Origin: Agarophyton chilense
Lineage: Eukaryota > Rhodophyta > Florideophyceae > Gracilariales > Gracilariaceae
Assembly (NCBI GenBank): GCA_030374765.1
Contig: JARGXX010000027.1
Location: 248,001 to 312,000, forward strand
DNA: 64,000 nucleotides
Direction: 5' to 3'
Positions 1,012-22,042 of the stretch are shown here, piece by piece. Below the pieces are notes generated by a model. It did no database searches, was not told where the DNA came from, and was given only the letters and a program-made list of their open reading frames with translations. The position numbers and the translations under genes are program-made. Every line of letters starts with the position of its first letter. The stretch's first letter is position 1.

Positions 1012-2470
1012 TTAGTTAGAAGAACCCAGATTGCCGTGCGGGCCACCTGAATCGCTAGAGGGGCTACTCCCACCGGCCAGACGTGCCGCGAGGGCGTCTC
1101 TCATCGTACCGATGTCGCCGCTCGCCGCTTGCGAGTTCAGTCCAACACCCCGAAGGAACTGGGAGATCACGACCGCCTCTGGGCGTATGGGAACCTCGAT
1201 AACTTCCGGTTCGTCCGGCAACGCCGCCGCCACTGGATCGACCACCGCACCTGCGTCAGTCACTCCCTGCGCCGGCCGCGCCGTAGTATCGGCACCATCG
1301 GGGTCTCCCACGTCTTCCATGACCTCGTCGCCACGGTATTCGCCCGCCTCCTCCGGGAGATCATCACCGCCATAGGCGTAGTAGAAGTCATCCGAGTTGA
1401 CAAACCTCACGGGGTGCCCGTATGATATGCCTCGCGGAGCCATCCGGAGTGCCGACGCCTCCGCCTCGGAGATCTCTTGCTGCTCCCACGGGTTAAAGAA
1501 GATGAAATCTCCCTCCAACGGCGTGCGACGCCCCGGAGACCGATCAGCCCCACCGGCTTCTTGACCACGGCCGCTCTGCCGGACAGGCACGACAGCCCAG
1601 TCGACACGCCGAATGATGTCGATGAGCTCCTGAGCTTCATCAGCGTTCTTGACACCTCCAAGAGGGAGTTGAAGGTCCAGCTGCCGGATGTAACCACGCA
1701 AACGCGGAAGAAGATACCACAGTCGATACTGGCCGTAGGCTTCCCACAAGATTTATGCCGCAGCGCGGACTGCCCATTCGGTTAGGACCACGGACCATAA
1801 GCCGGAGTGGGGATCCTCGATGAGGTACGAGCCCAGATAGGAGACTACTAGAGGCAACTTCACGTAACATCCCCGGCACACCTCGAGGAAGGACCACCAC
1901 CCAGGCAGGGGAACGTATCTCCCGAACTGGTAGAAGGGACTAATCCGGTTTACCTCCGTGTTCTGATAAGGGACAAGGAACCCAAAGCGGGACCTGCCCC
2001 GACGCTCCTCGCGGACGAAATTCTGTAACCACCGATATCGGGACTCACGACGAAGGTGACGGAACTCGGCACGAAGGATGGGACGGGCCCAGCAGATCGC
2101 TTCTTGACGCGCTCGCGGTTGACCGCGCCATGGGTAAGTTTCCAACGCTGCAAGGCGGTCACAGTAACCGATCTCACCTTGAGTCCGGTACATCCGTAGG
2201 TCGAAGCCGAATTCGTCAGGGATGGGGTATTGGAAGTTCGCCTGGTTGATCCGTGAGTAGCCGATGCGGACGAAGGTACAATGCGCCTCTTCCGCCAACT
2301 CGCGCCTTCGCCGCAGAATCGCGTAAACGGGAACTGCCACACGGCGTCGCCAGTCCCACGAAGTGGTGATCAAAGCAGGCAGCTCGCCCGGGAGACGCGC
2401 ATTGCCATCAGCATACGCGGCCAAGAGTTCTTCGTCGAAGACGGCTGTTGGATGGAACCACGGAGCTCTC
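1012..2470 (-). mobile_element. Antisense coding block of family A, upstream copy
   Basis: This block of coding character lies on the strand opposite to gag-pol, between the end of the chromodomain region (about 822) and the LTR at 2915. It is broken in this copy. Visible features are an APWF motif near its N-terminal end, a central stretch rich in Arg with RAEFRHLRRESR, the motif FGFLVPYQ, a Trp/Tyr-rich middle and an acidic C-terminal third. No known domain is recognised. A closely similar copy is at 11254-12690 and a diverged one is in element B (13392-15218). Extra antisense reading frames downstream of pol are known in some plant LTR elements; whether this one is related to those is not known. 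Confidence 0.65.
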
Positions 2471-2900
2471 CGGAGAATTGCTGCATGTTGACGCGGGTTT
2501 AACCCGACGAGTTCGTCGAAACTGGGCCAGGTGCCCTCCGCAGGAGTGATGTAGCTTGAAACTTCAACGGGACCCCGGGATCGGCTCGGCGCGGTTGAGG
2601 AGGCACTCCCCGCGGAAGGGGAGCCGAATGGAAACCGGAATAGTAACCCCGGCGGGGATTGTTACCACTCTTCATCGGGAGAACTGGTCGCCGAGGTATC
2701 GGGATGTGGTCGCGGGAAGTCGGCGTACGATGCAGAACAGCGCTAGAAGTTCGAAAAGTGGTTACCGCGTTGATGCGTTTCTCGTTCGGTTGTGCTGCTC
2801 TGCCTTCGACAGTCGAGTGGTCGCCGGACGCGTTACGCGGCTCGCTCTTATGCCGGTTGGACCGTTGCCTCCCCGCCATTTTGACGGCGTGTTCGTCACC

Positions 2901-2914
2901 TAAGGAGGGGGATA
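2901..2914 (+). other. Polypurine tract before the family A LTR
   Basis: A run of purines (AAGGAGGGGGA followed by TA) directly precedes the TGAAGG start of the LTR at 2915. The same arrangement precedes the second LTR at 23302. In LTR elements this tract primes plus-strand DNA synthesis. Its presence to the left of the 2915 LTR shows that this LTR ends one copy as well as starting the next. Confidence 0.7.
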
Positions 2915-3802
2915 TGAAGGACAATGCCCTTCAAGGGGGTTTCTTCCCAGGACTTAAAAGTTTCGCTCGCTTGAGGAATAGCTTGGGCTATGACAAGCTA
3001 TACCGCTATTGCGTGCTGACGGCCGGTTAGGACCAGAAGTGCACACTGGTGGAACACGTGGACTGCACGGATGCCGACGCTCGAGTGCGAGGCGTGCCAC
3101 ACGTGACCCGGACTGTACCTCATGGTTAGTATTATTTAGTAATTTTTAGTATTTATTTAGCTACGCTATCGCTATTTAGTGTCTATTTTTCAGGCGCCCG
3201 CCCACTGTCAGGGGCCGCGCGCCACACTACTTAGGAGGTTGAGCACTGCTCCCCAGTAAACACCCTCTCGGGAGATACCAAGGAGGGAGTCTTGGCTCTG
3301 AACTTTTCGCCTTCGACGGGTCCTAACCGCATACTGCGTGAGCGCCCGTCGCACTTTAGTTCATCCACCTTACTGTCGACCAGAGTGCTACCACCACCAT
3401 GGGTTCATATTTAATCGCCGACACTTGTCGTAGTCTCGCCCCTGTATAGGGTTTCGCCCCCGTTTTCCTCTTGTTCTCCTTTTTGGCTCTCGTGAGTGGC
3501 CGCCTCACTCACCTCGCTCGTCCACCTCATACGAGTGTTTCCTCGCTTCTTTTCCGACAATCGCCGTGGTACCGCTCTGCTTAGGATTGGTCACACCCCG
3601 GACTGTGCCGTGCTCACCTAAACACTCTAGATCTATCCCGCCGGATTGGCCTGGGTCTTACACCCGACTCCGTCGTGCCTTTCCAGAGTGGCTCTGTTTC
3701 TGTGCTCCGCTGGGACGCGTCTCCACCGCCTGAGGCGTGTCTCTCAAGAGAGGAAGATCCCGAACATCTTCGTGGTGTCTCCGCTCCAAGCGTTGTTCTA
3801 CA
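2915..3802 (+). repeat. Family A LTR shared by two tandem copies
   Basis: This 888-bp LTR begins TGAAGG and ends CTACA. The boundaries are supported by the matching copy at 23302-24189 and by a related solo LTR at 55786-56650 that has the same ends and a perfect target duplication. The left part carries two CACGTG motifs (3055 and 3100). An AT-rich TTTAG-repeat stretch (about 3125-3190) lies between this part and a GC-richer right half. Confidence 0.85.
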
Positions 3803-3805
3803 AAC

Positions 3806-3817
3806 TGGTGTCCCGCC
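3806..3817 (+). other. Primer binding site of family A
   Basis: TGGTGTCCCGCC starts 3 nt after the LTR end. It would pair with a tRNA whose 3' end reads GGCGGGACACCA. The corresponding place in element B has a similar sequence (about 22151-22173, minus strand). The tRNA species cannot be named from this window. Confidence 0.6.
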
Positions 3818-4078
3818 TTAGAAGTTTGAGTCGGGCACACTCAGTCACGATTAATCGGAAAGAGGACTCACAAATTGAGGTTGATCCCAGTTGCCCTCTT
3901 TGAGGAAGTTTCTTGGCCCCACTAGCCGATCGGGTTTGGATACTCACGTGTAACGGACTCTGATCTCATGTCGTCAAAAGACCGTCCGAGGACGCGGAGT
4001 CAAACCGGTGCACCGGAACCCTCGTAACCATCCCGTATCCCGGTCCGTTCACGGTCTTATACCGGTGGATCGACTGGC

Positions 4079-6027
4079 GTGCCAGGTGGAAGGACCTCGA
4101 GACCTCCTGTCTCTGATTCGACACCCCCAGCAAATGGAGCAGGACCGGCGTCTGCCACCACCCTGATGCTCTCCCCTGCTAGGGATGTCAGTCCCCATCT
4201 CAGCCTTGCAGCTGTGGAAGAGCAACTCCGCTCTATGCGGGAAGCTCAAGTCATGCTTGCAGAGGAGTTCGATTCCCTTCGCAAGAAGGTAAACGACACT
4301 GCCATGCAGGATTTTTCTGAGGACCTCCGTGTCCTCCGTGCGAATTTGAACTCGATTCAGGAGTCCCTTGGTGGACCCTCGGCCTTTGTGAAGGACGTCG
4401 CGGACAAGTTCTCGCGCGTCCGAAGCCGTCTCGAGACGTTGGAACAAACCTAATGTCGGGGGATGATCCGGTCGAGCCGGTTGCAGTATCCCACAATGGA
4501 TGTGAGGAAGAGAACCGCCAGGCTCGAAAGAGGCGAAGAAACACGGATCCCGAACCGTCAGACTCCTCATCCTCGGAGTCCGACTCTTCCGATTCATCGG
4601 TGGAAGTAGCTCGCCGTGAGCGTTCCTCACGCTCTAAGCGGTCAACAGCAACCCATGGTGTGATCCGCGCCCGCACGAAGGGAAGGAAGCACACAGGTTT
4701 GAAGGAGCTGAAACCGACCAATTCGCTCTTTAAGAAGCTTATATCATACCGGTACTACCGTTTGGAGGACTTCTCTTTGGATCGTACACCCCGTGGTACG
4801 GGAAGAGTGAAGGACTGCATTAAGCGAATGCAGCTCTCACTTCGCAACCAGTTGTTTACTAGAGAAGACCCAATATTGGTGTTGGATTTCTTTGCACGCT
4901 TTGTCGCGGAAGCTGACATCCTTGGAATGAACGAGGAACAGGCCTACATTGACTTACCGTGCTTCTTACGTGGGCTTGCAGAAGACCAGTATTACTCTGT
5001 CAGAGGTTCATCACGCGCCTCCGAAGGAGGGGTCACATGCTGGCCTGAAGCAGTTCAGTACCTCCTGAGGTCGTATGCTACTTACTCCGCCATTCAGCAG
5101 GCTATACGCGCCCTGCAGAACACTCGCCAACGTCCAGGCGAGTCGGAAACCGATAATTCGTCGCGCCATGACAAGGCCTCCCACCGCTGCGGCAATGTTT
5201 ACCCCGCTGAAGAGCGTTGTACCATGTTTGTCGATGGTTTGGACCCGGCGATCCGGACTCTTGTTGCTCGACGTCGAGAAGATAGACCTAAAGCCACGTA
5301 TTTGGAACTAGTGCAGTTCGCTCGCGCAGAAGGTGAAGCCCTGCGCGCACGCACTCCTGGATCCAGGCTTAGGTCCGCAAAAGCGTTGATGTTACAACCG
5401 GGTACACCGTCAGCTTCGATGATCGACGAACAGGCCTCTCGAAGGGATTATGATAACGTGCAGCTAGCCCATAGCGCCGTTCATTCCATCCCGACAACGG
5501 AGTTACCCTCAACCTTGGACGAATCACAATACGTGATTGAGGATGACACTCTACTCTACGCGGATAATGGTCGCGTCCGTGCGCCACTCGTCCAACACGA
5601 GAGTGGTAATGTCCGCTTTTCGCGTCCTGGTTGGAGAGATACCCGCCCCGCGGTGAAGTTCGCCGAGCTTCGCCATCCAACACCGGCTTCTGGTCTTATT
5701 TGTCATCTCTGCTACAAACCAGTCCATACTTCTCCACAATGTGTGTTGTCTCTCCGAGAATGGGCACAAGTCGTAGTCAATTACGAGGCCCTATCCGCGG
5801 AGGACAAAGCAGCTGTTCCGATTGCATCGTATATCCGTGCTCGAACGGATGTTCCACGTCACGTGTCGCTTCCCCGAGCTCGGGTGGTACCTGCACCGGA
5901 ATCCCGTGTCACCGACGTGGTCGGTCACCCCACCGCTTCTGCGGTACCTTCTGGACGTGATGCCCCGGCGTTGCCTGTTCAACGTCCTGAGCAGCCGCCT
6001 CCGGCGGAGCAGGCCGAGAAAAACTAA
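4079..6027 (+). mobile_element. gag: gag region of family A (second copy)
   Basis: This is the structural-protein region of the family A fossil. The N-terminal part is predicted coiled coil, followed by a Ser/Asp-rich and basic stretch, a retrotransposon gag core, and a CCHC zinc knuckle of the form C-x2-C-x4-H-x4-C near 5700 (CHLCYKPVHTSPQC). Element B carries the same order of parts on the minus strand. A leader of about 275 nt separates it from the LTR. The region shows damage and is given as an approximate span only. Confidence 0.8.
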
Positions 6028-6059
6028 ATGTGGGAGTCTCCTCTCAAGGAGGGGCGCCC

Positions 6060-9000
6060 TGAGAGTTGAGGTCGACGGCGCCCGAGGCGTCCAAGCCTCG
6101 CTCCCCGGTTAAGATCCTTTCAAGGAAAGAGGCCGTCAATGACGTGAACTCGGAACACTTTAGTGTTCTGCGTCGTCCGTGGAAACGTGTTTCCCATAAC
6201 CGGTTCCCGGATAGAGTTCTGGTGATGGCCAAGAGAAACTACAAGGTCTATGCCGACCTTGGCCTTTCACCCCAGTTTATGGTGCGACACCTTACCGTCT
6301 TAGACACCGGTGTCCGTCCGAACTTTGTCGTGGAGGAAGTGTTACCGCCTGCATTGCAGTCTAGAATCCGCCGCGACCACGTCCTGGAGGTCGCTGACGC
6401 GAACAACAAACCATTGGGGACGGTGGGGTTCATAGAACTGGTAGTCCTCGTTGGCGCTCGCGTGGTGAAACTCGACTTCGTCGCATGTCTGAAATTAGCC
6501 GCCCCATCCATCTTGGGTTGCGACTTTTGCGACCGCTTCGTCGAAGCGGTCTTCCCCCGCCAACGGCGTGTCGAGATGGAGGATGGATCGTCCATTCCAA
6601 TTGTTCGTCGTCCGCTTAGGCGTGCCACGAAGAAGCACGTCCCGCTACCGGCAGCACAGGGACCTGGATCGGATAACCGTGAATCTAATAAGCTCCGCGT
6701 CGCAGCGTCGTTGTGCGTCCCGCCTGAGTCCCAAATGATGCTGAAACTAACCTCCCGTCAACACGGACTCCGGGTCTTGCAACCATTGTCGTCACTGTAT
6801 GACAGGCACAGCCTCGCAATTGCGAACGAATGGAATCGTCCATGTGGAGCCAAACCAACCGTTTCACGTGCTGATCGCCAATCTAGGCACTGTACCCCAG
6901 TATCTGGTGAAGAACCAAGTGGTAGGGTCCGTCATGCCGCACCCCATCGCTATGGTGCCGACAAAGCTGACCGCAGCTGACGTTCTCGGACTCGTTCACT
7001 CTAAGGAGGGGGACAGCCCGGAACCCGATTCATCACTGGTACCCGGGGTTCAACCTGTAACATCAGGGACGCAGCACGTTTCAACGAGTGGTGACCGCCC
7101 CAATCCAGTCCAAGAACTCGAGGACCTGGATCTCAGCCACGTCCTGGAGTCATACCGCCATCGATTTCGAGAACTGTTGAGGGACTTCACCACTATGTGG
7201 GACGGCTCCCTTGGTGAGATTGCCACTACGGAACATCGGATTGATTTTCTACCGGACACCCGACCCTTCCCTCAGTACCCATACCGTGCCGGACCCGCCG
7301 CACGCGCGCAGGAAAAGGCACATGTGGATAAAATGCTTCGAGCAGGAGTCATTGAACCGGCTCAGTCGCCTTGGGCTTCTCCAGTAGTACCGGCTCCAAA
7401 GCAGGATGGTTCCTGGTGGTTTTGCGTCGACTACCGTCGGTTGAATGCCGTTTCCGTTAAGGACGTGTATCCAATCCCAAGAATGGAGGATTACATTGAC
7501 TCTCTGGGCACTGCCACCGTCTTTACAACCCTGGAAGCCAATTGGAAATACTGGCAAGTTCCGGTAAGGAAGCAAGACCACGATGAAACCGCTTTCGCGT
7601 GTCACTCCGGTCTCTACCGTTTCAAACGGATGCCTTTTGGTCTTACCAACGCCCCCGCTACTTTCCAGCGAGCCATCGACATCCTATTGGCCCGCTTCAA
7701 ATGGCGTACTTGCCTGGTCTACCTGGATGACATAATCGTCTTCTCAGATAATCTGGACAAACATCTCACTCATGTGAGAGATATAATGACCACGCTTCGA
7801 GATGCGGGTGTCACTCTCAAGTTGAAGAAATTTTACTTCTTCACGGACACCGTGAAGTATCTCGGCCATGTTATCAGTGCAGGACGTGTCACAATCGAGG
7901 AGACTCGTGTGAAGTCACTCAAAGAGGCTAAAGAACCGCGGACGCAAACCGAGCTTCGTTCCTTTCAGGGACTCGCAAACGTCTACCGACGATTCATCCC
8001 GCACTTTGCGGACAAGGCTGCACCGTTAAACGCGCTTTTGCGGAAAGGCCAACCACCAAAACTGGACCCCTTAATCCCCGTTCAAACGGAGTCTTTCAAC
8101 TCTCTTAAGGATTCTGTCGTCTCCGCCCCGATCCTGTCGTTTCCGAAGCCTGGGAGGCCCTTCACCGTAGATACGGACGCCAGCGACTACCAAGTAGGTT
8201 GTGAACTGTTTTAAACTGCACCCAATGGGGAAAGACGCCCCGTAGGGTACTGGTCCCGATCGCTAAACGTCCACGTGAAAAGTTATTCCGTCTCGCAGAA
8301 GGAATGCCTTGCAGTAGTGTAGGCATTACAAACGTTGCGCCCTTATCTCATGGGTAATCATTTCACCGTTTTTACGGACCACGCATCACTTCGATGGCTA
8401 CTCTCCATCTCGGAGCCTTCAGGCCGCTTGATGCGTTGGCGTCTCCGTCTAGCAGAATTTGACTTTGACGTGCAGTACCGAAAAGGATCGTGCAACACCC
8501 AAGCCGATGCTCTCTCCCGCCTGGTCACTACTGGCGAAGCACTACCCGTCAAAGACAATGAAATACCCTGCTTTGAAGTGAATGGCGACGACGCTACCAT
8601 CGAGGACGAGGAACGAGACACGGACTCTTCAGATTCCGGTTCCGAATTGGACGACTTTCTTCTCTCGGAAGATTCCGAGAAACCTTTACCGGAGAACTTC
8701 GTGCCTATTACTCCAGAGAAGATGATACGAGAGCAATTCGCTGACCCGTTCTGCGCGAAGGTCTGCGCTCAACTCAATGGAGGAGGTACTCTCCCCTTTC
8801 AGGTGAATGACGCCGGATACCTTGTACAGACTGTCGGATGGCACCCACAAATCGTGGTACCACATAACCTCCAGTCGAGAGTCCTGCGGTTGACGCACTA
8901 CTCCAAACTGAGTGGTCACGTCGGGGGACGGAAACTTTACCTCACCCTACGCCGTAACTTCTACTGGCCTGCCATGGCAGTGGACTGCTACGCAATGGTG

Positions 9001-9930
9001 CGGTTTTGTACCGATTGCGCTCGGAACCGTGTCAAACTCTGGCGTCATGCGACGAATTGGAAGCTGTTTCCAGCTCGCGCTCCTTTGGAGTTTTTGGCCA
9101 TCGATATACTCGGTCCCTTCCTTACCACTAAGCAGAATTACAAGTTCTTACTCGTAATTACGGATAGCTTCTCCAAGCTGGTCCAGACCGTACCGTTACG
9201 GAAGATCTCCGCTATGAGCGTGGCTCAAGCCTTCGTCCTACACTGGGTCTTCGTCTACGGTCCACCGGTCAGCCGCCTCTCCGATAACGGGGGACAGTTC
9301 GCCTCTCGTTTCTTCGAGGATGTTTGTCGCATCTTGGACATTAAGAACCTGTTCACGACCACTTACGACCCCCGAACTAATGGGCAGCCCGAACGGTTCA
9401 ACCGGACATTACTTGCGACACTCCGTTCATACGTTGCAGACCACCCCAAAGATTGGGATTTGTTCACTGATGCGCTCACCTTTGCGTACAATACGCAGGT
9501 GCACAGGACAACTGGATAAACGCCCTTCGAGCTGGTATTTTCCCGTACCCCACCGCCCGTGGCGCTGGAACCACAGCCCACGCTGGATACCTTTCCGTCA
9601 CCGACTGCTTACCGCGAAGCATGGAAAACTTGGCTCACGAAGCTCGTTTCCGCCGCACGGCGTTCAATGGGCCGAGCCCAGGCCGCTTATAAGCGTGACT
9701 TTGATACCAAAGCCCCTCGCTCTCCGCCACGTTTCGCCCCCGACGGTTATGTATTCATCCGCAAGGAGTATTGGAACCCAGAGAAGGAGAAACGCCACAA
9801 GCTGTCACCCGTTGCCGACGGCCCTTTTCGGGTTATTTCGGTGGCTCCCGACCCTGTCGTTGTTGACCTCGATGGTAATCACGAATGCATCTCCTGCGAT
9901 CGCGTGGTATCGGCTCCTCCGCCGTTAACA
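6060..9930 (+). mobile_element. pol: pol region of family A: protease, reverse transcriptase, RNase H, integrase
   Basis: In order along the + strand are an aspartic protease with the LDTG signature (about 6.3 kb), reverse transcriptase with YLDD in YLDDIIVFS (about 7.73 kb), RNase H (about 8.2-8.5 kb, with FTDHASLRWLL) and integrase (about 8.7-9.5 kb). The integrase has an HHCC zinc region and a DDE core including SDNGGQF and NGQPERFNR. The protease-RT-RNase H-integrase order is that of Ty3/gypsy elements. The coding region is broken in a few places. Element B has the same order and related sequence. Confidence 0.9.
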
Positions 9931-11040
9931 TCCCAACCTACTGGTGTGACTGCTCCCGTTGAAACGGATTCATCGACCCCCTTACCCCAGGTCCACCTGC
10001 GTCCCTACGCGTTACCACACCCATCTCGGGGTTTGTCTGACATTCCGCTACCCGCGGCGCCCAACCGGCAAAGAATCGTGTCGCGCATCCGTCGCTCCAC
10101 CCCAGTCCACCCGACGGACACCCACCCCGGTGCATCGTCTAAGGAGGGGGAGCCGCCTGACAACCGTCGTAATCCGGTCGATACCGTCGCTGGAAACGCC
10201 GGACCGTCGCGTGTCATTCTTCGCCCATCAGGGGTGCCTGATACCAACGTCCTGCACGACTCGACGCAGTCGCTATCCACGCCTCAGAACGCAGCTGCGG
10301 ATAACGCCAGCAACACTCGCCAAGGTGTCACCACACGTGCAATACGGAATGAAAATGCGCTCGACGCACTGCAGCCAGATACAGTACGAGTAGACGACGC
10401 ACCGCCAAGTACCTCGCACAGGGAGGCGGATACATCCACGGCACCGACCCCGGACAGCCACCCATTGGAACCCTCACGTCACTACACGGAAGCTCGCCGT
10501 GGGACGGAGAGGTGCGACAATGCGCCACCGCCCCAGCGAATCTCACCGCCGAAGCAAGCTTCACCACGCCGATTAGCGGAACGACCACCCTGGTTACCCG
10601 CTGGTGTGGGCCCTCCAACCGGAGTGGGAAGCGCCGAAACAAGCCCGGCACTCGGGGAAAATGAACCCCCGAATTCGGGTCGACATTCTACTCAGCCCAG
10701 GACTGCCTTGAGCGCTACACGGTCCGACTGGAGTGAAGCCGCCCGACGCGTGATCACTTCGGTACCCCCTGGCTCGGGACGGGTACCACCCGGAAATAGC
10801 GACCCCGTCATAAGGGATGGCCGGGAAGTGTACCGACAAGAGTTCGTGGTCGGACGCATTCTGGAGCACTTCTACCACCCAAAGAGGTATATCCAATACT
10901 TGGTCCGTTGGTACGGGTACGGCCCCGAATGGGATTCAGACGAACCGATAGAGCACCTACCTCGATCAAAGGTGGCACAGTATCATCGTCGTACTGTCAC
11001 GGCTTTGCCGGCTACCATAGACCGAGCCCAAGTGGGATAA
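9930..11040 (+). mobile_element. Integrase C-terminal tail with chromodomain, family A
   Basis: After the integrase core comes a Pro/Thr/Ser/Arg-rich linker of about 250 residues and then a chromodomain close to the end (about 10.83-11.0 kb). The chromodomain contains FVVGRILEH and YLVRWYGYGPEWDS, the aromatic-cage type pattern. In chromoviruses such a domain steers integration to marked chromatin. An almost identical copy, ending at 822, opens the window. A related chromodomain closes the pol of element B at about 15.6-15.75 kb. Confidence 0.85.
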
Positions 11041-11253
11041 GAAGACACCCGATAGGGATAATGGAACAGAAGATATGGATAAGGACCCTTGGAAGAAGGA
11101 GAAGATGCACAGAAGACCTGGAGGAGGGACACTCAGAAGAAGTGGAAGAGAAGAAAGAGAAAAAGTACGTCATAGACGGAAGCAGTTTACTATTTTCGAA
11201 GTTGCTGCAAACACTACCGCACAGCGGGACATACTAACCAAGATCACAAGGGA

Positions 11254-12690
11254 TTAGTTGGAAGAACCCAGATTGCCGTGCGCGCCACCCGAATCGCTAG
11301 CGGAGTTACTCCCGCCGGTCAGGCGTGCCAAAAGGGCTTCTCTCATGGTATCGATGTCGCCGCTCGCCGCTTGCGCGTTCAGTCCAACACCCCAAAAGAA
11401 CTGGGAGATCACGACCGCCTCTGGGCTTATGGGAACCTCGATAACTTCCGGTTCGTCTGGCAACGCCGCCGCCACTGGATCGATGACCGCACCTGCGTGA
11501 GTCGCTCCCTGCGCCGGCTGCGCCGTAGTATCGGCACCATCGGGGTCTCCCACGTCTTTCATGAACTCGTCGCCACGGTATTCGCCCGCCTCCTCCGGGA
11601 GATCATCACCGCCATAGGCGTAGTAGAAGTCATCCGAGTTGACAAACCCCACGGGGTGCCCGTATGGTATGCCTCGCGGAGCCATCCGGAGTGCCGACGC
11701 CTCCGCCTCGGAGATCTCTTGCTGCTCCCATGGGTTAAAGAAGATGAAATTTCCCGCCAACGGCGTGCAACGCCCCGGAGACTGACCAGCCCCACCGGCT
11801 TCTTGACCACGGCCGCTCTGCCGGACAGGCACGACAGCCCAATCGACACGCCCAATGATATCGATGAGCTCCTGAGCTTCATCAGCGTTCTTGACACCTC
11901 CAAGAGGGAGTTGAAGGTCCAGCTGCCGGATGTAACCACGCAAACGCGGAGGAAGATACCACAGTCGATACTGGTCGTAGGCTTCCCACAAGATGTACGC
12001 CGCGGCGCGGACTGCCCATTCGGTTAGGACCACGGACCATAAGCCGGAGTGCGGATCCTTGATGAGGTACGAGCCCAGATAGGAGACGACTGGAGGCAAC
12101 TCCTCGTAACATCCCCGGCACACCTCGACGAAGGACCACCACCCAGGCAGGGGAACGTATCGCCCGAACTGATAGAAGGGATTAATCCGGTTTACCTCCG
12201 TGTTCTGATAAGGGACAAGGAACCCAAAGCGGGATCTGCCCCAACGCGCCTCGCGGATGAAGTTCTGTAACCACCGATATCAGGACTCACGACGAAGGTG
12301 ACGGAACTCGGCACAAATGATCGGACGGACCCAGCAGATCGCTTCTTGACGCGCTCGCGGTTGACCGCGCCATGGGTAATTTTCCAACGCCGCAAGGCGG
12401 TCACAATAGCCGATCTAACCCTGAGTCCGGTACATCTGTAGGTCGAAGCCGAATTCGTCGGGCATGGGGTATTGGAAGTTCGCCGGGTTGATCAGTGAGT
12501 AGCCGATGCAGACGAATATACAATGCGCCTCTTCCGCCGACTCGCGCCTTCGCCGCAGAATCGCGTGAACGGGAACCGCCACACGGCATCGCCAGTCCCA
12601 CGAAGTGGTGATCAAACCCGGCAGCTCGCCCGGGAGACGCGCATTTCCATCAGCATACGCGGCCACGAGTTCTTCATCGAAGACCGCTGT
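11254..12690 (-). mobile_element. Antisense coding block of family A, downstream copy
   Basis: This is the second copy of the antisense block, very similar to 1012-2470 and broken. It starts about 200 nt after the end of the chromodomain region and runs towards it, so sense pol and this block converge. Its upstream end was split from its natural surroundings by element B. A purine-rich (sense-strand) stretch fills the gap between the two converging ends (about 11060-11175). Function unknown. Confidence 0.65.
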
Positions 12691-12700
12691 GGGATAGAAC

Positions 12701-13367
12701 TGTAGTATCCGCTCTAACGGAGAGAGCAGACACCTGCGACAGCGTTCGGACTGCCGATGGGTCGCTTGCGGCGAAGTAAAAGGGGTGGTAGAGCTACAAC
12801 ACCAGCGAGCTGGAAGTGGGGTGTAAGTCCACTACTCGCCAGCGAGGGTGAACAGTGCAACTGTAAAACGTTGATGGAACGTATGTACGAGACGGCTCGT
12901 GAAGTGGTTAGGGGCTGACTATCTATTATAGCTCGTCCGGATCTCCGGTTAAGGAATCCTAAGCGAGGAACAGAATAGTCATGATGCCCATGTTGTCTCC
13001 TTTACTTGGAGTCGGCGCTCACCTCTGGTACACCATATACTGTGTGCCAGTGTGAGTGCCCAAATAAATTTATAAATAATACCCAGTGGTCAGCCACTTA
13101 GCCAAACCACTGTATGGGTATGGTCCCTAATGGACGTCTAGCTACAAAGGGTAATAAAACCAGCCACGTGGATCGCCACTACATGCGCCGTTGCAAGCCA
13201 CTCCACTCGTGATACCACGTGTCCCAACACTGTACCCTGCCTCCTGGCATCCTACGCAGTGTGCCGTTTCATATCAAAAGTTTGATGACATCATTCACTT
13301 ATGAGTTCCAACCGCGACTTTGCGAAAAATCATCCTATCGTATTCCCCGACATAGTAGAATACTACA
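12701..13367 (-). repeat. Element B 3' LTR
   Basis: The 667-bp LTR has ends TGTAGTAT and ATACTACA, which form a short inverted repeat. It matches 22174-22840. A TTTATAAATAA sequence near 13069 could serve as a TATA element in either direction. Two CACGTG motifs sit at 13165 and 13216. A purine tract on the minus strand (complement of about 13370-13380) borders it, as expected of a polypurine tract. Confidence 0.9.
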
Positions 13368-13391
13368 TAACCCCCTCGTTAAGCGCGAACC

Positions 13392-15218
13392 ATGGGGGAC
13401 GCAAGAAGCGTTTATACGCACTCGGACCGGTGTTCCGGGTACTCATCTTCATCAAGAAGTCCTCGCCGCCCGACCAACTCTTACAGTTCTCAACAGCATT
13501 CTGTTCCTCACCGCTCTTCAGCTCGATCTCTCGCGATGAATCCGAACACCGGGTCCAACCCGTTTCAGCCCTCCTCTGAGAATGTGCCTTCTGAGGCTTC
13601 GTCCAACACTGCTGGTTGTGCATCGCATCCTACTGCTCAACTCCGTCCATTTCGTTCGTTCCCCACACCGTGCACCGGATTCCGGTCGGTACCGTTACCT
13701 CAGCCAACCGTGGCTCCGATGCCGAATGCGGCTTACGTCGCCTCTGCGGGTGTGATTCGAGCTCCTTCTCGTCGTGCTCAGCGGAGCTACCCGCACCCTG
13801 CAGATTTCTATGGACGAGATCCTCTAGACAACGTTGAACTTTTCGGGCAATCGCCCTGGTTTGATCTAATTGCTATCCGCAATGACGCGTTGATACAACA
13901 GTATGTACACGGTGGGTACTTCCCTGACGGTATTCCGGAGCACGCGATTTATAGCGACGACAGGGCGAGCCATATTGCTTTGCCAGACAACGCGATTGCG
14001 CGATATTCAACGGAAACCTTGTCCGAAGCCCGTACGCGGTTCACCAAGCTGATTTCCCAGCGTCTTCACCGATTCATCACTACGGTTTTCCTCCCGCAGG
14101 ACTGGGAACTAGATACTTGGAAAGCCCGTACCAACGGTGAAGGTTACTCGTATATCCAGACACTCGTTGAAGTCGATGTTAGTGGTTGGCGCGGTGTGCG
14201 CGGTGTGCGTGATGCAGCTCTGTGCTTTCAGCAACCTCTTCTCCGTGCGGAGTTCCGCTTCCTTCGAAAGCGTGACATTCCCTATTGGGATGATCTTCGT
14301 TGGGAACGTCGTACTCGATCACGTTTGGGCTATTTGGTGCCGTATTAATTGATCGAGATTGACCGCATCCAGCGAAGCGCGCGCTTCGGGCGCTACATCT
14401 GTATTCCGGGGCATTGGGCGGCGATCGAGAGTCCTCGTGGTTGCCCTGTGGAGCTCCCACCGGCGATGTCCTACATCGGGTCCGCGTTTGTTAACGACCC
14501 GTTCTCGGGATATTGAACAGTGATTTATACCAAGTTTATCGCCAAGATGGCCGTCTTCCTCCTGTGGGATGCTTATGATACCTTTAAAGTTTGGTACATG
14601 TCGCCTACAGCGCGAAAGTATGCGAGAGAACTCGATCTTTCCCTTGTCCCGGGATCCCGTGCGAATCATGCGGACTTTCTCCATCTTGTGGATTTGATCG
14701 ACTGTGTCGATTGGTCTGGAGTGCCAGCAGATCAATCCGCTCGCGGAACCCGTGCAAGACACCACGACCATTCTCCTGGAAGAACAGCATGTGCTGGAGA
14801 TTTCGTTTGGTACGACCCCCGGACGCGCCAGTTGATCACCTCCGAGAAGTCTCGCTTTCTTCGGGAGAGCCCGCGTGACATGGCACCGAACCAGCTTACT
14901 GGATACGTGTACGATGTTACTCCATCCGAGAACGGAGAGGAACCGTATGAGGAAGCGCCGGGAGCTGAGGCTGAACTCGGTTACGAGGACGAGCCAGAGC
15001 TGGCAGGCGTAGCGACTTCCGTCGATCAATCCGCAGCGGCGGGAGTTGCTCAAGAGTACCTTCATGGGTTTACCCAACAACTGAGTGCAGTTCCGGTCGA
15101 AGATCCAGGATTGGATCCGCTGAGGCAGTTACTCTTAGACGCGGGCTTTCCCTTGGACCAAGTTGAGGGTGATCGCGCACAGCTTCTTGCGAACCTGCGT
15201 GCTCGCACGTCTCTTTGA
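13392..15218 (+). mobile_element. Antisense coding block of element B
   Basis: This plus-strand block lies in an element that is otherwise read on the minus strand. It starts about 25 bp inside the 3' LTR and faces the chromodomain end of pol. It is broken. It is the diverged counterpart of the family A antisense blocks: they share an (A/S)PWF motif, LLRAEFRFLR versus ILRAEFRHLRR, and RTRSRLGYLVPY versus RGRSRFGFLVPY. A Trp/Tyr-rich middle and an acidic C-terminal third are also common to both. The N-terminal part is Ser/Pro-rich. No known domain is recognised. Confidence 0.65.
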
Positions 15219-15330
15219 TGATCCTAGAAAAGATTCCTAGTCAACACCCTTGCGGTGGTATCTTGATACCAATAAAACTCCGGTGACTTCGTGTCTTCAC
15301 GTTCCCTTCTTATCTTCTAGTCTTCATCTC

Positions 15331-15432
15331 TTCTCGCTTCTAGAGTTCTTAACTTCTTCTTCTCGCTTCCGAGTTTCATAATTCCCTTCTCGCTTCTCGA
15401 GTTCTTCAATACTTCTTCTCGCTTCTCGAGTT
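15331..15432. repeat. Tandem repeat of about 29 bp at the junction of sense pol and antisense block in element B
   Basis: The core TTCTCGCTTCTCGAGTT recurs at about 15331, 15360, 15388 and 15416, with a further diverged copy near 15507. On the element's own sense strand the repeat is purine-rich. It lies between the converging 3' ends of pol (about 15547) and the antisense block (15218). Confidence 0.7.
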
Positions 15433-15546
15433 TGTCCTAGGTGATAAACAGTAAACGTCTTTTGCTTGCGTGTCTTCACGTTTCCTCTGCATGATTTCTT
15501 GTTTTCTTCTCGCCTTTCGAGTTTTTACTACCTTTGTAGCCCATAC

Positions 15547-17320
15547 TTAGAAATGGGATGTGCCCATGAGCCCGACTATCGAGGAGTCGATCTCCCTTGG
15601 GAGTGGTAATCGCATGCGTACATGATATCGCACAAGTTGCGAACGGGGAATATGAGCTATAAGTTCCCACGTATCCGCTTTCGGAGAAAAACCGTACCAA
15701 CGGACTGGATACAGTAATTCTCTAGTATCCTCATGCTCGCCATGTTCACATATGCGATCCATAACATATTCTTGGGCGTTTCCCGATGCTTTCGCTGTTG
15801 GCGCGAGACTCCTGTTAACAGGTTTGAAATGCCTTCGGGATGAGCCAAGCGTCTCTGGGTTAGCAGTCTCAGTGTCGTCAAGCGTTTGCTCGTCGACTAA
15901 CTGTCGTTCTGCCCGCAGGGGCAGTGTACTCATTCCTTGAGGACCTTTCTCAGATAAAGAACTATCCTGTTTTCCAGGTTCCATAGAAGCGTACTTCTTG
16001 CTACTTCTCAATTCCATTCGTGGATGAACTTCCTTCGGTTCATCCGTTTCTGACCGCTGTTCGGTGGACGATGGTGCTTGCACCACGACAGGAGGCGGTA
16101 ACTCTTCTTCGTCCTGCCCACGAGGGATGGGAGCCGATATCGGCGGAACGGCGAGTGGCGCTTCACCTGACGGTTCAGCCTGAAGCGGCAACGGCGCGTT
16201 TTCGCGTGCACTCGTTTCCAAGCCCTTGGGGGCAAATTCCAAAACTTCTTTCCTGCTTTCAGGTTCCATTTCTGCAATTACGGGTGTGCGCGTGCCACGA
16301 AGCACATCCCGATAACTCGGAAGCTGACCGTTATTGGCGTACGCAACCACCGGCGGTGGGAGATCAGGAGCTTTCTCCTCCACTCGAGCCATTGGTGGCG
16401 GTTTACTCTCCCCAGAGTCACTTGGGCTTTTGCCTTGACGTCCGGTCGCACTTGCCTCCTTAGTTCTACCAGATACCTGGACTTCTACCTGCGTATTGTA
16501 CGCGTAGCACAGAGTATCTGTAAACATGTCCCTTTTTTTTGGGGTGGTCCGCGATGTAGTGTCGTAATGCTGCTATCAGCGTGCGGTTCAAACGCTCCAC
16601 CTGACCGTTGCATTGCGGATGATAGGTCGTGGTAAACACGTTTCGAATGCCCATAATGCGGCAACCATTCTGAAAGAACTTCGCACCGAATTGCTTCCCA
16701 TTATCTGATAACAGAACTTCTGGTGGTCCGTATATAAATACCCAGTGTTTGATAAACGCCTGTGCGATTACGGCTGCGGTTATCCGCTTCAGCGGCACAG
16801 TCCGCAATAGCTTCGAGAAGCGGTCGGTGATTACCAATAGGTAGCTATAACCTCGCCTTGAGCGAATCAATTCCACTAGGATGTCGATACTGACGTATTG
16901 CAAAGCCGCTTTCGCCTGGAATAACGTTATCGGTTTTCGCTTCCTGTAAAGCTTCACGCGATTCTTCGCACATGTTTTACACAACCTCACTGTAGCATGG
17001 CAGTCCATTGCCAAAGTAGGCCAGTAAAAATCTCTTCTTAGAGTCATGAACAACTTCGTTCCTCCTGGATGACCAGACAACCTGCTGTAGTGTGCCAGAT
17101 GGAGTACTCGACTCTTCAAGACGTGTGGAATCACGATTTGATCATGCTTTTTGACATGTCTTAACAGTATTCCTCGTGAATCGAGTGAAAAGGGGAGCTC
17201 CTCCCCCCCGTTAAGACGAGAGCGTATCGACGCACAAAAAGTATCGGCGTGTTGCTCATTGAGGAGCTCAGTGCACGAGATTCGCTCGAGTTGAACTGAA
17301 GGGTCAGTGTCTGCTAATGC
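15547..17320 (-). mobile_element. Integrase and chromodomain region of element B
   Basis: The integrase has the HHCC zinc region (about 17.0-17.1 kb) and the DDE core, including LLSDNGKQFG and CNGQVERLNR. A Pro/Glu/Ser-rich linker follows, then a chromodomain with YPVRWYGF and DTWELI at about 15.62-15.75 kb. The arrangement matches family A, though the linker is diverged and shorter. The region is broken and given as an approximate span. Confidence 0.85.
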
Positions 17321-19770
17321 AAGGGACGGGTCTGCATCCGAATAATCATCAAGTGTCTCTTGTTCCTCTTCTTCAAAAGATGGTGAATGGGTCTCCATGT
17401 AGAAGCAAGGTATCTGTTCATCGATTTCGCCATGGGTTTCGCCCAGTGTTTTGAGTCGTAAAACGTTCTCCTTGGAGATACGGTCGCAATGTGGTTAGAG
17501 CCCAAACGACTGCAAGTAATTCCTTTTTTGAAACTGAATACTTCTTCTCAGCTGCGTTCAGCGATCTTGACCAGTAACCAATGGGTTTGAGTTCACCATC
17601 AGGATGTGTTTGAAAAAGGGCACACCCTACTTGGTACTCGCTAGAGTAGGTATCCACTGAGTATGGAAGGTTGGGGATGGGCAGCGCCAAGGTTGGGGAT
17701 GGGCAGCGCCAAGATTGGGGCTGTAATAATCTTTGTCTTCAGCGTGTCGAACGCTTCTGCTTCAGCTTGTCTGAATTGTTCCAGCTGTACTGGTTGTCCT
17801 TTACGCAGCTTTGCGTTGAGCGGTGCCGCTATATGCGAGTATCGCGGCACGAATCGTCGGTAAACGTTGCACAAGCCGAGGAAAGAACGCACTTGCTTCT
17901 GTGTCGACGGAGGTTGTACTTCGCGAAGAGCCGCTGTTTGTGCCTCTTGAATGGCAATCTGTCCCAGTTTGATCACATGTCCCAGGTACTGGACGGCGCC
18001 AGCGAACCATTCGAATTTCTTGAACTTCAAGGTGATACCTGCGCTCTGTAGTGCTTTGAGGATCTCCTCGACAGGCCGTAAATGGCTTTGCACATCCTGG
18101 GAAAAGATGATCACATCGTCCAAATAGACTAAACAAGTCTTCCACTTGTATCTTGAGAGCAAGATGTCCAGAGTACGCTGGAAAGTAGCCGGTGCATTCG
18201 TTAAGCCAAAGGGCATCCTTTTGAAGCGGTAGAGACCGGCGTGACACGCATATGCGGTTTTGTCTTGGTCTTCTCCCGGTACAGGCACCTGCCAATAGCC
18301 AGAGTTGGCGTCCAACTTGGTGAACAGGTTCGCTTCTCCTAAGCTGTAAATACATTCGTCTATTCGAGGCAACGGGTATATATCCCGAACTGTAAATTCG
18401 TTCAGTTTTCGATAATCGATACATAATCGTAAAGAACCATCAGGTTTTGGAACCAGCACCACTGGTGAGGCCCAAGCAGATTGAGCTGCTTCGATTACTC
18501 CTTCTTCCAGCATTTTGCTGATATTCTCCTCCTCGATTTGGCGAGTTCGCGGTCCCGCTCTGTAGGGTGGTTGGGAGATGGTCGTGACCCTGGGACCAAA
18601 TCAATGTGGTGTTCCGTAGCGGAGATCTCTCCTATTTTTCCACTCTACATGGATGTTTACATCTTCAGCATAGATCTGATCTTCGTTCTGTAGTGTTTCG
18701 ACACATGTGCTAAGTCTAGCTCATCGATCAGGCTCTCTGGATCCGTTGCCGTATGTAATTGATCTCCAGACGGAGTTTGCAGTTCTTCGTCTGTGTCACC
18801 GACATGGGTTAATCCCAATACTTCTGCAGTAGAAATATGAGTAGGGACCACCACTTTGGGATGAGGCAAAGCTGTTGCGACAACCTGATTCTTCGGTATC
18901 TGATAATCGTTATCGGTGAAGTTACTCATTAGTATCTAAAAGGGGCTACCAGGATCAACCTGAACAATGCCGTTAGCGACTAGCAATCCACGGGATTTGT
19001 AGATCCGAGTATTTGGTTGAATTACCACGAGTCCGTGTCGTTCTGTTCTTACTTGAACCCAAGTTTGGGTTTGCGCATTCAGCATGGCACTCTTCACTAC
19101 TCGAATCCTGGGAGAGACACGTCCTCGAGATTTCCCGTATTCCATAGATGGTGGAAGTGGATGTGCTTCAGAGCAACGACGCACTTGCTTGCGAACAATT
19201 GGTACCATTGATCCATCATCTAGTTCCACTAGTTTTCTTCACGGGCGAATGGCTTCGACAAATTTGTCGCAATAATCCCATCCCAGTACCACTGGTGCAG
19301 CTAACGTCTTACAGTCGATGAAGTCTACTAGGACTACAAAGCGTTCCAAACGCACCACGAGTCGAACTGTTCCCAGTGCCTTCACAGCATTTTTGTTCGC
19401 ATCCCGGATGTCCGGTAAAGGACCGTATCGAATACGTTCTAAGTCAGCAGGAGGGAGCTCCGAATCCCGTATAAAGTTCGAACCAGCACCTGTGTCCAGG
19501 ATAGTCAATCGACGCGATAACAGATTCCTGTCAGAGCCGATGTCGGCATAGACCTTATAGTTTGTTTTAGACATTACTATGAGGTAACTTTCCTGTTTTG
19601 ACGGACAAGTGTAACGTCTCCAAGGACGATGTAACTCACAGTCAAACTGTACTCGCTTTCCGTCCGGCGGATTGATTCCGTACGGCGGAAATTTGGGAGG
19701 TCTCAAGAGAATCTTGGGCTTCCAAGCGCGGGAGCAGGGAGGCGAGCTCTCCCTGGTCAGCACTACGGAA
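17320..19770 (-). mobile_element. pol: Protease, reverse transcriptase and RNase H region of element B
   Basis: The aspartic protease carries LDTGAGSNF (about 19.5 kb). The reverse transcriptase carries YLDDVIIFS (about 18.1 kb) and typical Ty3 motifs such as RLCIDYRKLNE and RMPFGLTNAP. RNase H lies at about 17.45-17.65 kb. A short tandem duplication of about 21 bp is visible near 17673-17713 in the connection to RNase H. The region is broken in several places. Confidence 0.85.
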
Positions 19771-19799
19771 TCGGCTAGTGACGACCCCCTAGGGGCTCC

Positions 19800-22042
19800 C
19801 TCACTTAGTTTTCCGGTTGCACCGGCTGCTTCGCCTCAAAGGCGCCTCTTCCTACCGGGGTTCCGGGTTGTAACAATTCAGCATTATGAGCAACCGGCTT
19901 GTCCGTCCGGCACATTGATGTCTGAGAAAACCAACTTTTGACTTTCCAATACATGCCCGCCGGTACGCGGCTCCTTTCCTCTTCTGAAAGTGCTTCGTAA
20001 TTCGTCATGATTCGATTCAGATCCTTTGCAGGAAGCGTGCATTCTGCACTCAAATGGTGTTTTCCATAACATGAATAACATATCAAACCGTCACGACTGT
20101 TGGTCAACATAGGTTATGAACGGTATGCCGTGCGAGTATCCACCCATCCGGGTTTCCGGTTCTTAAAACCTCCTTGTGGTGGCACTGTGTAGGGACGGTA
20201 CATAGGGCGACGGCCCTCCATAACCATTAGGGCTTCCTCGTCCTGAGACTCCGAGTGTGGGAGATTTACTGTAGGTACAGATGAGTCCATATATTCCATT
20301 AAATGGACCGCCTCCTCATGCGAGTCACTCCCTTTGGGTGCCAACGACGAATCTCGTGAGTCCACTGGAGATTCCAGATGTAGCACTTTGCTGCGCTGAT
20401 TAACTCTGGCGGAGATCTTCTCCTTACCCATTGAGGTTCCAAAAGCCACTGAACGACGGGGGCTACCACGCGCTCTGGCGGCGTACCCTTCAGCTTTCGC
20501 AAACTGAACTAACTCCAAAAAGGAGACTCTTCCATGCTTCTCTCGATATTGAGCTACCAACGACTTGATTCTCGGGTCCAGCCCGTCGATGTACAAGGTA
20601 ATCTTGTCCTCCGTCGAGTGGACGTTTCCACAGCGGACTGAAGCTTTGTTAAGCCTTGAGCTGTACTGAGCTTCGCCCTCCTCATGCTTTTGGGTCAAAT
20701 CCCTTAGGTCTAGGATCGCCTGACGTATCGCGTTTGAAGTCGTGTAACTGCGTAGCAAATACTGCACCGCCTGTGGCCATGAGGTAACGCCGTCTTCATC
20801 GGCTGTCAATGATCCGCATACGGAACGATATTGCTCTAAAGCAAAACCCTTCAGGAAGTGTGGTAAAGACACAAATGCCTGTGGCTCACTCATCTATAGA
20901 GTGTCTGCTTCGGCAACGAATCGAGTGAGAAACTCGATAACGAGAATGGGGGTTTTCTCATCAAATGTTAAATCATTAAGGCCGATCTTCAATCGTTTGA
21001 TGTGATCCCTCACCTTCGCGGTTTCGCGTCCTGAGCGCTTCTTGCTCTTCACCTTCAGACGGTAGTACCTGTAATTCAGGACCTTCCGATAAAGCGGATT
21101 CGTGCACGGGAGCCCCTTCAATCCTCTATAAGGTGAGCCTTTTTTTCTCATTAACCACGAAGACGTGTTCTTCTTCCGAGATCGGGCCCTTCGATGACCA
21201 TCATCACTGCCATCGTCATCTGACGTATCTGAATCATCAGAATCATCAGTACTGGAACTGAAATCCTCCGTACTTGACGATTCATCACTCAAATCACGTG
21301 CGGACTTCCGCTTCTTACGTCGTGAATTCGACTTCTTCGAACGAGCTTCCTTCAAAGGAGCTCCTTCCTCTTTAGGCACGACTGGTTTAGCAGCAGTCTG
21401 CGCATGAACTGCCGCCTCCAGGCGTTCTAAAAGAGGGTTAACTCGAGTGAGGACTTCCTCTACATCCAGGGTTAACCCGGGTAGCGCATCGGGCGTATTC
21501 CCGTACCTCTCCAGTACATGGTTCAAATCCTCACGTAGTGTTTTCACTGATGCAGAGATGTGCTTCCCATCGTCTTGACGAACGAGTGCTTGATGCGCAC
21601 TGCGTAATTGTTCGACATCAGCGATAAGAGCAGTGATCTGCGATTCCAACGCAACCATGCGCACTCGCGAAACGCTAGACTCAGACTTGAGACGACGCAC
21701 TTCCCTGCGCAAATCATCCTCTTCTTGAGGTCCGATGACCTCAGGGTCAACTACGGCTTCTGTGGTGGGCGTGACTGCCGCTGCCACAGGGACCAGTACA
21801 TCCGAGAGATCTCGTTCGTCATTCACCGAGCGTGAGCGCGACATCGCTTGACGATACAGCCGCTCTCCGGCTTCAACAGATGAGGCGAGCCTCAGTTTCG
21901 GGGGTGGTCCCGCAGGACCGGGGCGACCAGTACTCGAATGGCTTCGGGTCTTCGGCATCCTAGACCAAACCTTAGTCCAGGTGCGAACCAAATGGTGTCT
22001 TCGACTTCTCGACCACGTGTTCAACCACGATGAATTCCGCAA
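19800..22042 (-). mobile_element. gag: gag region of element B
   Basis: The N-terminal half is predicted coiled coil, then a Lys/Ser/Asp-rich stretch, the gag core, and a C-x2-C-x4-H-x4-C zinc knuckle (CYSCYGKHHLSAEC) near 20.06 kb. This is the same layout as the gag of family A. The region shows damage. Confidence 0.8.

What the first reader, a model, noticed from the sequence alone, without database searches (positions are those of the whole stretch)
1012..15218. Related antisense coding block in two diverged chromovirus families
Family A (1012-2470 and 11254-12690, minus strand) and element B (13392-15218, plus strand) both carry an extra coding block on the strand opposite to gag-pol, at the same place between chromodomain and 3' LTR. 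The A and B blocks share motifs (RAEF-R-LR, R(T/G)RSR-G-LVPY, (A/S)PWF) although LTRs and linkers have diverged. Shared presence and similarity across families suggest the product was kept by selection. I recognise no known domain. It may be an accessory gene of this retroelement group, read from a promoter in or near the 3' LTR. The copies here are broken fossils.
Basis: partly seen in the sequence, partly recalled or inferred. Interest (0 to 1): 0.75.

Follow-up and report, generated by a model that had tools for sequence, protein, structure and literature searches.

The report
Antisense third gene in algal retrotransposons
Several families of copy-and-paste elements in what is probably a red alga carry the same extra gene, written backwards at their far end, and natural selection has kept its protein intact even though its role is not known.

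Summary
Elements A and B carry a homologous reading frame antisense to gag-pol, between the chromodomain and the 3' LTR (BLASTP E 4e-28 and 2e-28). The window copies are broken, and B is nested inside A2's block. The genome (79.8 Mb) holds at least four families (A-D) with this frame: at least 118, 150, 75 and 68 scored copies, with open 608-645 aa frames in all four. The frame is under purifying selection. Between families dN/dS is 0.24-0.34 where computable, against 1.0-1.6 in four of five other frames. In A and B pooled, only this frame of six is depleted of shared non-synonymous (p 0.007) and nonsense (p 0.0005) variants. aORF, RT and integrase give the same quartet, so the gene was inherited with the element. 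Named homologues: Gracilariopsis chorda, Agarophyton chilense. Pfam, PHROG, PDB-sequence and fold searches gave no significant match; no transmembrane segment. Best reading: an LTR-driven antisense mRNA for a soluble accessory protein, working like plant antisense aORFs (Grande, Retand). The layout is known; the protein family and setting appear new. Transcription and molecular role are untested.

The parts
1012..2879 (-). aORF of element A1 (3' part of a family A element): about 622 codons, one in-frame stop (1753-1755) and one frameshift between 2499 and 2661
   Evidence: ORF pieces 1012-1752, 1753-2661 and 2499-2930; L013 lies on an open natural copy with 4 bases missing and 1 stop
11254..12700 (-). 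aORF of element A2, C-terminal and middle part, interrupted at 12700 by element B
   Evidence: ORFs 11254-12279 and 12415-12831; self-comparison; L001
22841..23266 (-). aORF of element A2, N-terminal part, on the other side of the B insertion
   Evidence: 22841-24189 matches 2454-3802 at 95.8%; sequence
13392..15218 (+). aORF of element B, 609 codons in one frame, stops inside at 14346-14348 and 14514-14516; B gag-pol is on the minus strand
   Evidence: ORFs 13383-14348 and 14517-15218 in one frame; homologous to A and to open B copies
2915..3802 (+). LTR of family A (5' LTR of A2, also abuts A1's 3' end)
   Evidence: TG..CA; matches 23302-24189
23302..24189 (+). 3' LTR of A2
   Evidence: 98.0% over 902 columns, including 14 bases before the LTR
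2901..2914 (+). polypurine tract of A, directly before the LTR and 21 bases from the aORF ATG
   Evidence: sequence; similar motif in the B, C and D copies read; called polypurine tract by eye
12701..13367 (-). 3' LTR of element B
   Evidence: 97.75% to 22174-22840
22174..22840 (-). 5' LTR of element B
4321..6027 (+). gag region of A2 (stop to stop; no Pfam Gag hit; zinc knuckle by eye)
   Evidence: related to gag of B, C and D
6751..8214 (+). reverse transcriptase piece of A2
   Evidence: Pfam RVT_1 E 4.8e-30
8323..9519 (+). RNase H / integrase piece of A2
   Evidence: Pfam RT_RNaseH, Integrase_H2C2, rve
10843..10992 (+). chromodomain of A2
   Evidence: Pfam Chromo E 3.3e-5, 24.1 bits, just under the cut-off of 25.1
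16466..17494 (-). RNase H / integrase piece of B
   Evidence: 51% to A integrase, E 3e-117
17641..18600 (-). reverse transcriptase piece of B
   Evidence: 56% to A RT, E 2.5e-131
20114..20893 (-). gag piece of B
   Evidence: 42% to A gag, E 1.5e-54

Best explanation
The block is a genuine third gene of a group of Ty3/gypsy chromodomain elements in what is probably a gracilarioid red alga. It encodes a soluble protein of about 608-645 aa: a probably disordered N-terminus (basic in A and D, weakly in B, not in C), a conserved Arg/Trp-rich middle, an acidic stretch and a short C-terminal helical piece. Shown: homology across four families, fixed antisense position, open copies, purifying selection, inheritance together with pol. 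Inferred: it is read from an antisense promoter in the 3' LTR, because its ATG lies a few dozen bases from the LTR; the messenger ends just beyond its stop. Inferred with low confidence: the protein acts in trans on the element's own life cycle as an accessory factor, most likely a nuclear nucleic-acid- or chromatin-associated regulator, as proposed for plant antisense aORFs. Estimates: selected protein-coding gene 0.95; LTR-derived antisense transcription 0.75; nuclear regulatory or integration factor 0.35.
For: A and B homologous. Own-genome searches: 118 A, 150 B, 75 C and 68 D scored matches, lower bounds. No stop in the matched stretch in 43 of 75 C and 25 of 68 D matches (counted by eye from the listings). 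Eight relatives in the protein database. Orientation: chromodomain antisense in 29 of 30 A and 30 of 30 B copies, LTR hit in 29 of 30 of each; one C and one D element have gag-pol and chromodomain on the other strand; 8 of 8 hand-chosen RT places, all family C, have the aORF antisense. Selection: A-D pN 0.341, pS 0.693, dN/dS 0.235 in the aORF frame, which has no stops, while other frames of that pair have 6-22. In A+B pooled, N/S is 2.41 for variants private to one copy and 1.58 for variants in 3 or more copies (p 0.0072); nonsense 59 private against 7 shared (p 0.0005); no other frame reaches p 0.05 on either test. Same quartet AD|BC for RT (bootstrap 89), IN (94), aORF (98). PPT-to-ATG 32, 21, 78 and 32 nt in one copy each of A, B, C and D. 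AATAAA 30-90 nt after the frame end in 29 of 30 B copies.
Against: No RNA, protein or localisation data. dS between families is saturated (1.9 or more, infinite for B-C), so the ratios are rough, and one other frame (minus, offset 1) also falls to 0.41-0.52. Within family B alone the N/S test is not significant (p 0.52; family A p 0.0045). Copies are related, so p values are guides. AATAAA is absent within 300 nt of the frame end in 30 of 30 A copies and from the C tail read. No TATA box at a shared place upstream. No recognised DNA-binding domain or strong nuclear localisation signal; pI 5.5-7.3. Structure prediction failed (pLDDT 46 and 48), so nothing structural supports the role.
Confidence: 0.8

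Rival explanations
1. The open frame is a by-product: an antisense frame kept open by composition or by a real gene on the sense strand of the same stretch.
For: Long open frames of 271-283 aa recur on the sense strand of many A and B copies, and one other frame has dN/dS below 1.
Against: In the natural copies compared, only the aORF frame is free of stops in all four families (others 5-26 stops per sequence in the four pairs tested); it has the highest amino-acid identity and lowest dN/dS of the six; only it is depleted of shared nonsense and non-synonymous variants.
Confidence: 0.02
2. The antisense RNA, not the protein, matters (a regulatory transcript); the frame is incidental.
For: Antisense transcripts of LTR elements may act as RNA (PMC7264820, parts 1-2 of 3 read); the position next to the LTR would suit this.
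Against: Protein-level constraint over 574-612 aligned codons and depletion of shared nonsense variants are not expected of a non-coding RNA. Both roles could coexist.
Confidence: 0.04
3. The protein is an envelope-like or cell-to-cell movement protein giving the element a mobile phase outside the cell.
For: Same place as env in retroviruses (between pol and 3' LTR; PMC7264820).
Against: Opposite strand; maximum 19-residue hydropathy 0.93-1.54 in four natural proteins and no hydrophobic N-terminus by eye. No viral fold match, but the model was too poor for this to count.
Confidence: 0.04
4. The protein is a structural or packaging partner of Gag, or a second capsid-like protein.
For: Size, mostly helical low-confidence prediction and Arg-rich core would fit a particle-associated protein.
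Against: No profile similarity to the elements' own Gag (hhalign probability 0.1%). Antisense expression would uncouple its dose from Gag.
Confidence: 0.15
5. A host gene captured by the element ancestor that still acts on a host pathway (for example silencing) in the element's favour.
For: Gene capture by LTR elements is known (PMC7264820); the only named sources of relatives so far are two gracilarioid algae.
Against: No non-retroelement homologue was recognised: three protein searches gave eight relatives (each scored only about 7,990 candidates), and no Pfam family matched. Origin is not settled: genomic context of those eight was not seen, four have no named source, and own-genome searches score only the best candidates, so a diverged host gene could be missed.
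Confidence: 0.2

Closest known systems
[quoted passage not shown]
   Same: Same position and orientation, kept in most copies of families, function unknown; Grande gene23 is transcribed antisense from a promoter upstream of it and its protein is nuclear.
   Different: Other hosts; sequence relation to gene23, RIRE2 or Boty was not tested (no sequences fetched); here the elements have a chromodomain and the ATG lies only about 25-80 bases from the LTR.
Retand elements of flowering plants with antisense TRP28 (PF04195) proteins (PMC11963269, abstract and passages seen)
   Different: Retand are non-chromoviruses with 2.9-6.6 kb regions, about half with tandem repeats; none of 10 aORF proteins here matches PF04195 at E up to 10.
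HTLV HBZ-type antisense regulators (as described in passages of PMC7264820 and PMC11963269)
   Same: Antisense gene read from the 3' LTR of a retroelement, a regulator there.
   Different: Only an analogy of layout; no sequence or functional link tested.
Chromoviruses (Ty3/gypsy with integrase chromodomain)
   Same: gag, RT-RNase H, integrase and chromodomain in that order.
   Different: An extra antisense gene; the listings show no chromovirus paper announcing one (papers not read).

Membership tests
Ty3/gypsy chromovirus | RT, RNase H, integrase of Ty3 order between LTRs | tested here: met
   Pfam RVT_1, RT_RNaseH, Integrase_H2C2, rve in A2; LTR pairs of A2 and B
Ty3/gypsy chromovirus | chromodomain at the C-terminus of integrase | tested here: met
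   Pfam Chromo E 3.3e-5 in A2, one bit under the curated cut-off; tblastn finds the domain in 29 of 30 A and 30 of 30 B copies (each count includes the copy the probe came from) and in the C and D element read (E 2e-22 and 8e-30)
antisense aORF between pol and 3' LTR (aORF-3R, positional class) | open frame antisense to gag-pol between pol and 3' LTR | tested here: met
antisense aORF between pol and 3' LTR (aORF-3R, positional class) | present in most copies of a family and conserved as protein | tested here: met
   conserved. Presence: RT-first sample 8 of 8, family C only and hand-chosen; not measured for A, B, D
antisense aORF between pol and 3' LTR (aORF-3R, positional class) | transcribed antisense from its own promoter | not testable with these tools
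   no RNA data; only ATG-LTR distance
Retand TRP28 (PF04195) | Transposase_28 domain | tested here: not met
   no match at E up to 10 in any of 10 members
Grande gene23 protein family | sequence homology | not tested
   no gene23 sequence was fetched
Env-like protein | sense orientation and transmembrane segment | tested here: not met
   antisense; maximum 19-residue hydropathy 1.54
Gag | profile similarity to Gag of the same elements | tested here: not met
   hhalign probability 0.1%, E 0.48

The most novel reading that the evidence does not exclude
Red-algal chromoviruses carry a lineage-defining third gene, unlike any protein family in the libraries searched, that is expressed from the element's end in the opposite direction and acts as a trans-acting nuclear regulator or targeting partner of the chromodomain integrase. 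It would be an independent invention, outside land plants and retroviruses, of the antisense regulator layout.
Probability: 0.3. Interest if true: 0.7.

Novelty: new variant of a known kind. Interest (0 to 1): 0.52.

Why it matters
In the review I read (PMC7264820), antisense extra genes in LTR elements come from flowering plants and a fungus, and their functions are unknown. Here four diverged families in one genome allow direct tests of constraint, and the protein turns out to be selected. It gives a compact system (one gene, hundreds of natural copies, open ones among them) for asking what an antisense retroelement gene does, and it suggests that this layout arose, or was kept, outside land plants and fungi. 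It also warns that 'hypothetical protein' entries of red algae, such as Gracilariopsis chorda BWQ96_03215, can be homologues of a retroelement gene.

Tried and rejected
Domain identification failed in each library tried: Pfam (only E3_binding, at E 0.018 in one broken piece and 0.24 in one of 10 members, both below cut-off and taken as chance), PHROGs (one match at E 0.26), PDB sequences (none up to E 1), AlphaFold2 twice (mean pLDDT 45.9 and 47.6), Foldseek of the second model against PDB and of the first against viral models (no match with E up to 0.001). The models are too poor for these fold searches to count against any fold. NCBIfam, PADLOC and the pdb_via aligner were not used.

Viral contigs were scanned with one D copy and P0003: 4 and 1 pattern matches, none confirmed. 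The alignment A3 was not conserved enough for that scan. Bacterial and archaeal genomes were not scanned.

An antisense promoter was looked for: no TATA-like element shared by place among families; A and D share a 141-column stretch (67%) just before the ATG. Suggestive only.

The spurious-frame idea was rejected; the Gag-relative idea.

Mended counts: the family A chromodomain probe was translated in a wrong frame; redone in the right frame with the same count (29 of 30). One search printed 4 of 30 B copies open without gaps, but one (L046) has an inserted base that the script dropped, so the count is 3.

Literature: (listings only; some found no paper) showed no paper on this gene in red algae; open-licence library only.
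Full report
WHAT IS THERE. The window lies in G000:C27:248001-312000, a genome of 79.76 Mb in 135 contigs. It begins inside a family A element (A1), whose 3' end abuts the LTR (2915-3802) of a second A element (A2). A2's second LTR is 23302-24189. Element B, on the minus strand with LTRs 12701-13367 and 22174-22840, sits inside A2's antisense block at 12700/22841 with a 5-base target duplication carrying one mismatch. A2 LTRs are 98.0% identical (18 mismatches in 902 columns, which include 14 bases before the LTR) and B LTRs 97.75% (15 in 667). The antisense frame (aORF) of A1 runs 2879-1012, that of A2 23266-22841 plus 12700-11254, that of B 13392-15218. A1 has one stop and a frameshift. A2 is split by B, with two further stops (L001). 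B has two stops in one frame.

IT IS ONE PROTEIN FAMILY. A natural open A copy (L011) matches the two halves of B at 31% over 229 residues (E 4e-28) and 37% over 132 (E 2e-28). Searches of the own genome score only the best candidates, so counts are lower bounds: 118 matches for the A piece, 150 for the B piece, 75 for family C (query P0003), 68 for family D. No stop lies in the matched stretch in 43 of 75 C and 25 of 68 D matches (my count from the listings). Of the copies fetched, the whole frame is open without gaps or insertions against the reference copy in 3 of 30 A, 3 of 30 B, 4 of 4 C and 4 of 4 D; the reference copy is among them, and C and D were chosen because listed as open (for B the printed 4 includes L046, which has an inserted base). 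Counting any stop-free stretch of at least 600 (A) or 590 (B) codons gives 5 of 30 and 5 of 30. Natural lengths: A 622, B 608, C 618, D 645 aa. Some matches look like further families; these were not followed.

OUTSIDE THIS GENOME. Three searches of about 5.77 billion proteins, each scoring only the roughly 7,990 candidates that share most words, gave eight relatives in all: P0001-P0005, P0006, P0007 and P0008. Four have a named source: P0002 Gracilariopsis chorda (hypothetical protein BWQ96_03215), and P0006-P0008 Agarophyton chilense; four have none. P0006 matches family A at 87%, comparable with the spread among A copies (82-100%), so the window genome is probably a gracilarioid red alga, perhaps A. 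chilense itself; this is an inference. Two viral-contig scans found no relative.

POSITION. In family A the chromodomain is found antisense to the aORF in 29 of 30 copies (missing in L003) and an LTR hit in 29 of 30 (missing in L001, which is A2, where B intervenes; only 61 bases in L011). In B it is 30 of 30 and 29 of 30 (L041 lacks the LTR; L056 has only an inner 130 bases). These counts include the copies the probes came from. One C and one D element read outward from the aORF show gag-pol on the other strand, and the chromodomain, also on the other strand, ends about 220 and 145 bases into the pieces that begin just beyond the aORF. Starting from reverse transcriptase instead: of 150 RVT_1 places listed, eight were chosen by hand among those not in the C list, and the stretch 3.9-4.9 kb beyond was fetched; 8 of 8 held an antisense aORF, all of family C. 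Whether other chromoviruses here lack the gene remains open.

SELECTION. Between families, Nei-Gojobori dN/dS in the aORF frame is 0.235 (A-D, 612 codons), 0.249 (A-B), 0.256 (C-D), 0.279 (B-D), 0.341 (A-C); for B-C dS is saturated. dS is high throughout (1.9-3.2), so the values are rough. In the four pairs recomputed in all six frames (A-D, A-C, C-D, A-B), four of the five other frames give 1.03-1.57; one (minus, offset 1) gives 0.41-0.52, still above the true frame, and has 19-26 stops per sequence. Pol and gag have lower dN than the aORF in the same pairs, so the aORF evolves faster than pol. Within families, private variants should be mostly post-insertion decay and shared variants mostly history of source copies. 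Pooled A and B (30 copies each, none dropped): N/S 1140/473 for private and 123/78 for variants in three or more copies (p 0.0072); nonsense 59 private and 7 shared by two or more, against synonymous 473 and 203 (p 0.0005). The same tests in the five other frames give p 0.40-0.80 and 0.07-0.58. Split by family, A is significant (p 0.0045) and B is not (p 0.52). Shared ancestry makes columns non-independent, so the p values are guides. The stops in the window copies therefore look like ordinary decay after insertion.

HISTORY. RT, integrase and aORF trees give the same quartet AD|BC with bootstrap 89, 94 and 98, and A-D is the closest pair in each of gag, RT, integrase and aORF. The simplest reading is one acquisition before the four families split, then vertical descent.

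WHAT THE PROTEIN IS LIKE. Ten members show no Pfam family at E up to 10 except one chance-level E3_binding; PHROGs, PDB sequence search and hhalign against the elements' Gag are negative. The highest 19-residue hydropathy is 1.54, lower than I would expect of a transmembrane helix; the first 100 residues are basic in A and D, less so in B and not in C; an acidic stretch lies near residues 500-550, weakest in C. Near-invariant residues are mostly Arg, Glu, Gly, Pro, Trp and Tyr; I see no obvious catalytic or metal-binding set (by eye). Two AlphaFold2 runs were poor (pLDDT 45.9 and 47.6), and fold searches gave nothing.

HOW IT MAY WORK. The ATG lies 32, 21, 78 and 32 nt from the start of the polypurine-tract complement in one copy each of A, B, C and D, which leaves little room for a promoter outside the LTR; an antisense promoter in the LTR is therefore the likely source (inferred; the LTR edge of C and D was placed by this motif only). 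A polyadenylation-like AATAAA follows the frame end by 30-90 nt in 29 of 30 B copies and by about 85 nt in the D copy read, but is absent within 300 nt in 30 of 30 A copies and in the C tail read. A and D share a 141-column stretch before the ATG at 67% identity. The role in trans as a nuclear accessory factor rests on analogy with plant antisense aORFs: Grande gene23 is nuclear and read from its own promoter (PMC7264820, parts 1-2 of 3 read), and Retand TRP28 is proposed to bind DNA (PMC11963269, abstract and passages). I hold it at about one in three.

NOVELTY. The layout is known from plants and Boty of Botrytis (PMC7264820). The protein family, and its occurrence in chromodomain elements of a red alga, did not appear in the listings (open-licence library only). 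I file it as a new variant of a known kind.

Noticed in passing
window 24200-25900 (minus): By eye, a gag/protease-like remnant of another LTR element beside A2; not checked for an aORF.
   Followed up: no
window 1-3802 and 2915-24189: A1's 3' end and A2 share one LTR, as left by LTR-LTR recombination or a tandem arrangement.
   Followed up: partly
window 12701-22840: B is nested in A2 and must be younger, yet its LTRs (97.75%) are not more alike than A2's (98.0%); the counts are small, so this may be chance or conversion.
   Followed up: partly
G000:C3:1441262-1442485, C3:1387430-1388656, C95:229310-230536, C100:1753956-1754954, C131:471124-472074: aORF matches that differ from A-D in length or identity and may be further families.
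   Followed up: no
L061 before its ATG (position 125): In the family C copy read, a TATATATA run lies within about 25 bases of the ATG I chose; the frame is also open upstream of that ATG, so the true start may differ.
   Followed up: no
window 27706-62751: Host-like genes by eye only: aquaporin-like 27706-28686, RING protein 30909-32882, LDH2-like 37686-38810, WD40 39671-41212, RRM protein 47052-49088, hydroxyacid dehydrogenase 59449-61248, aminotransferase 61387-62751.
   Followed up: no
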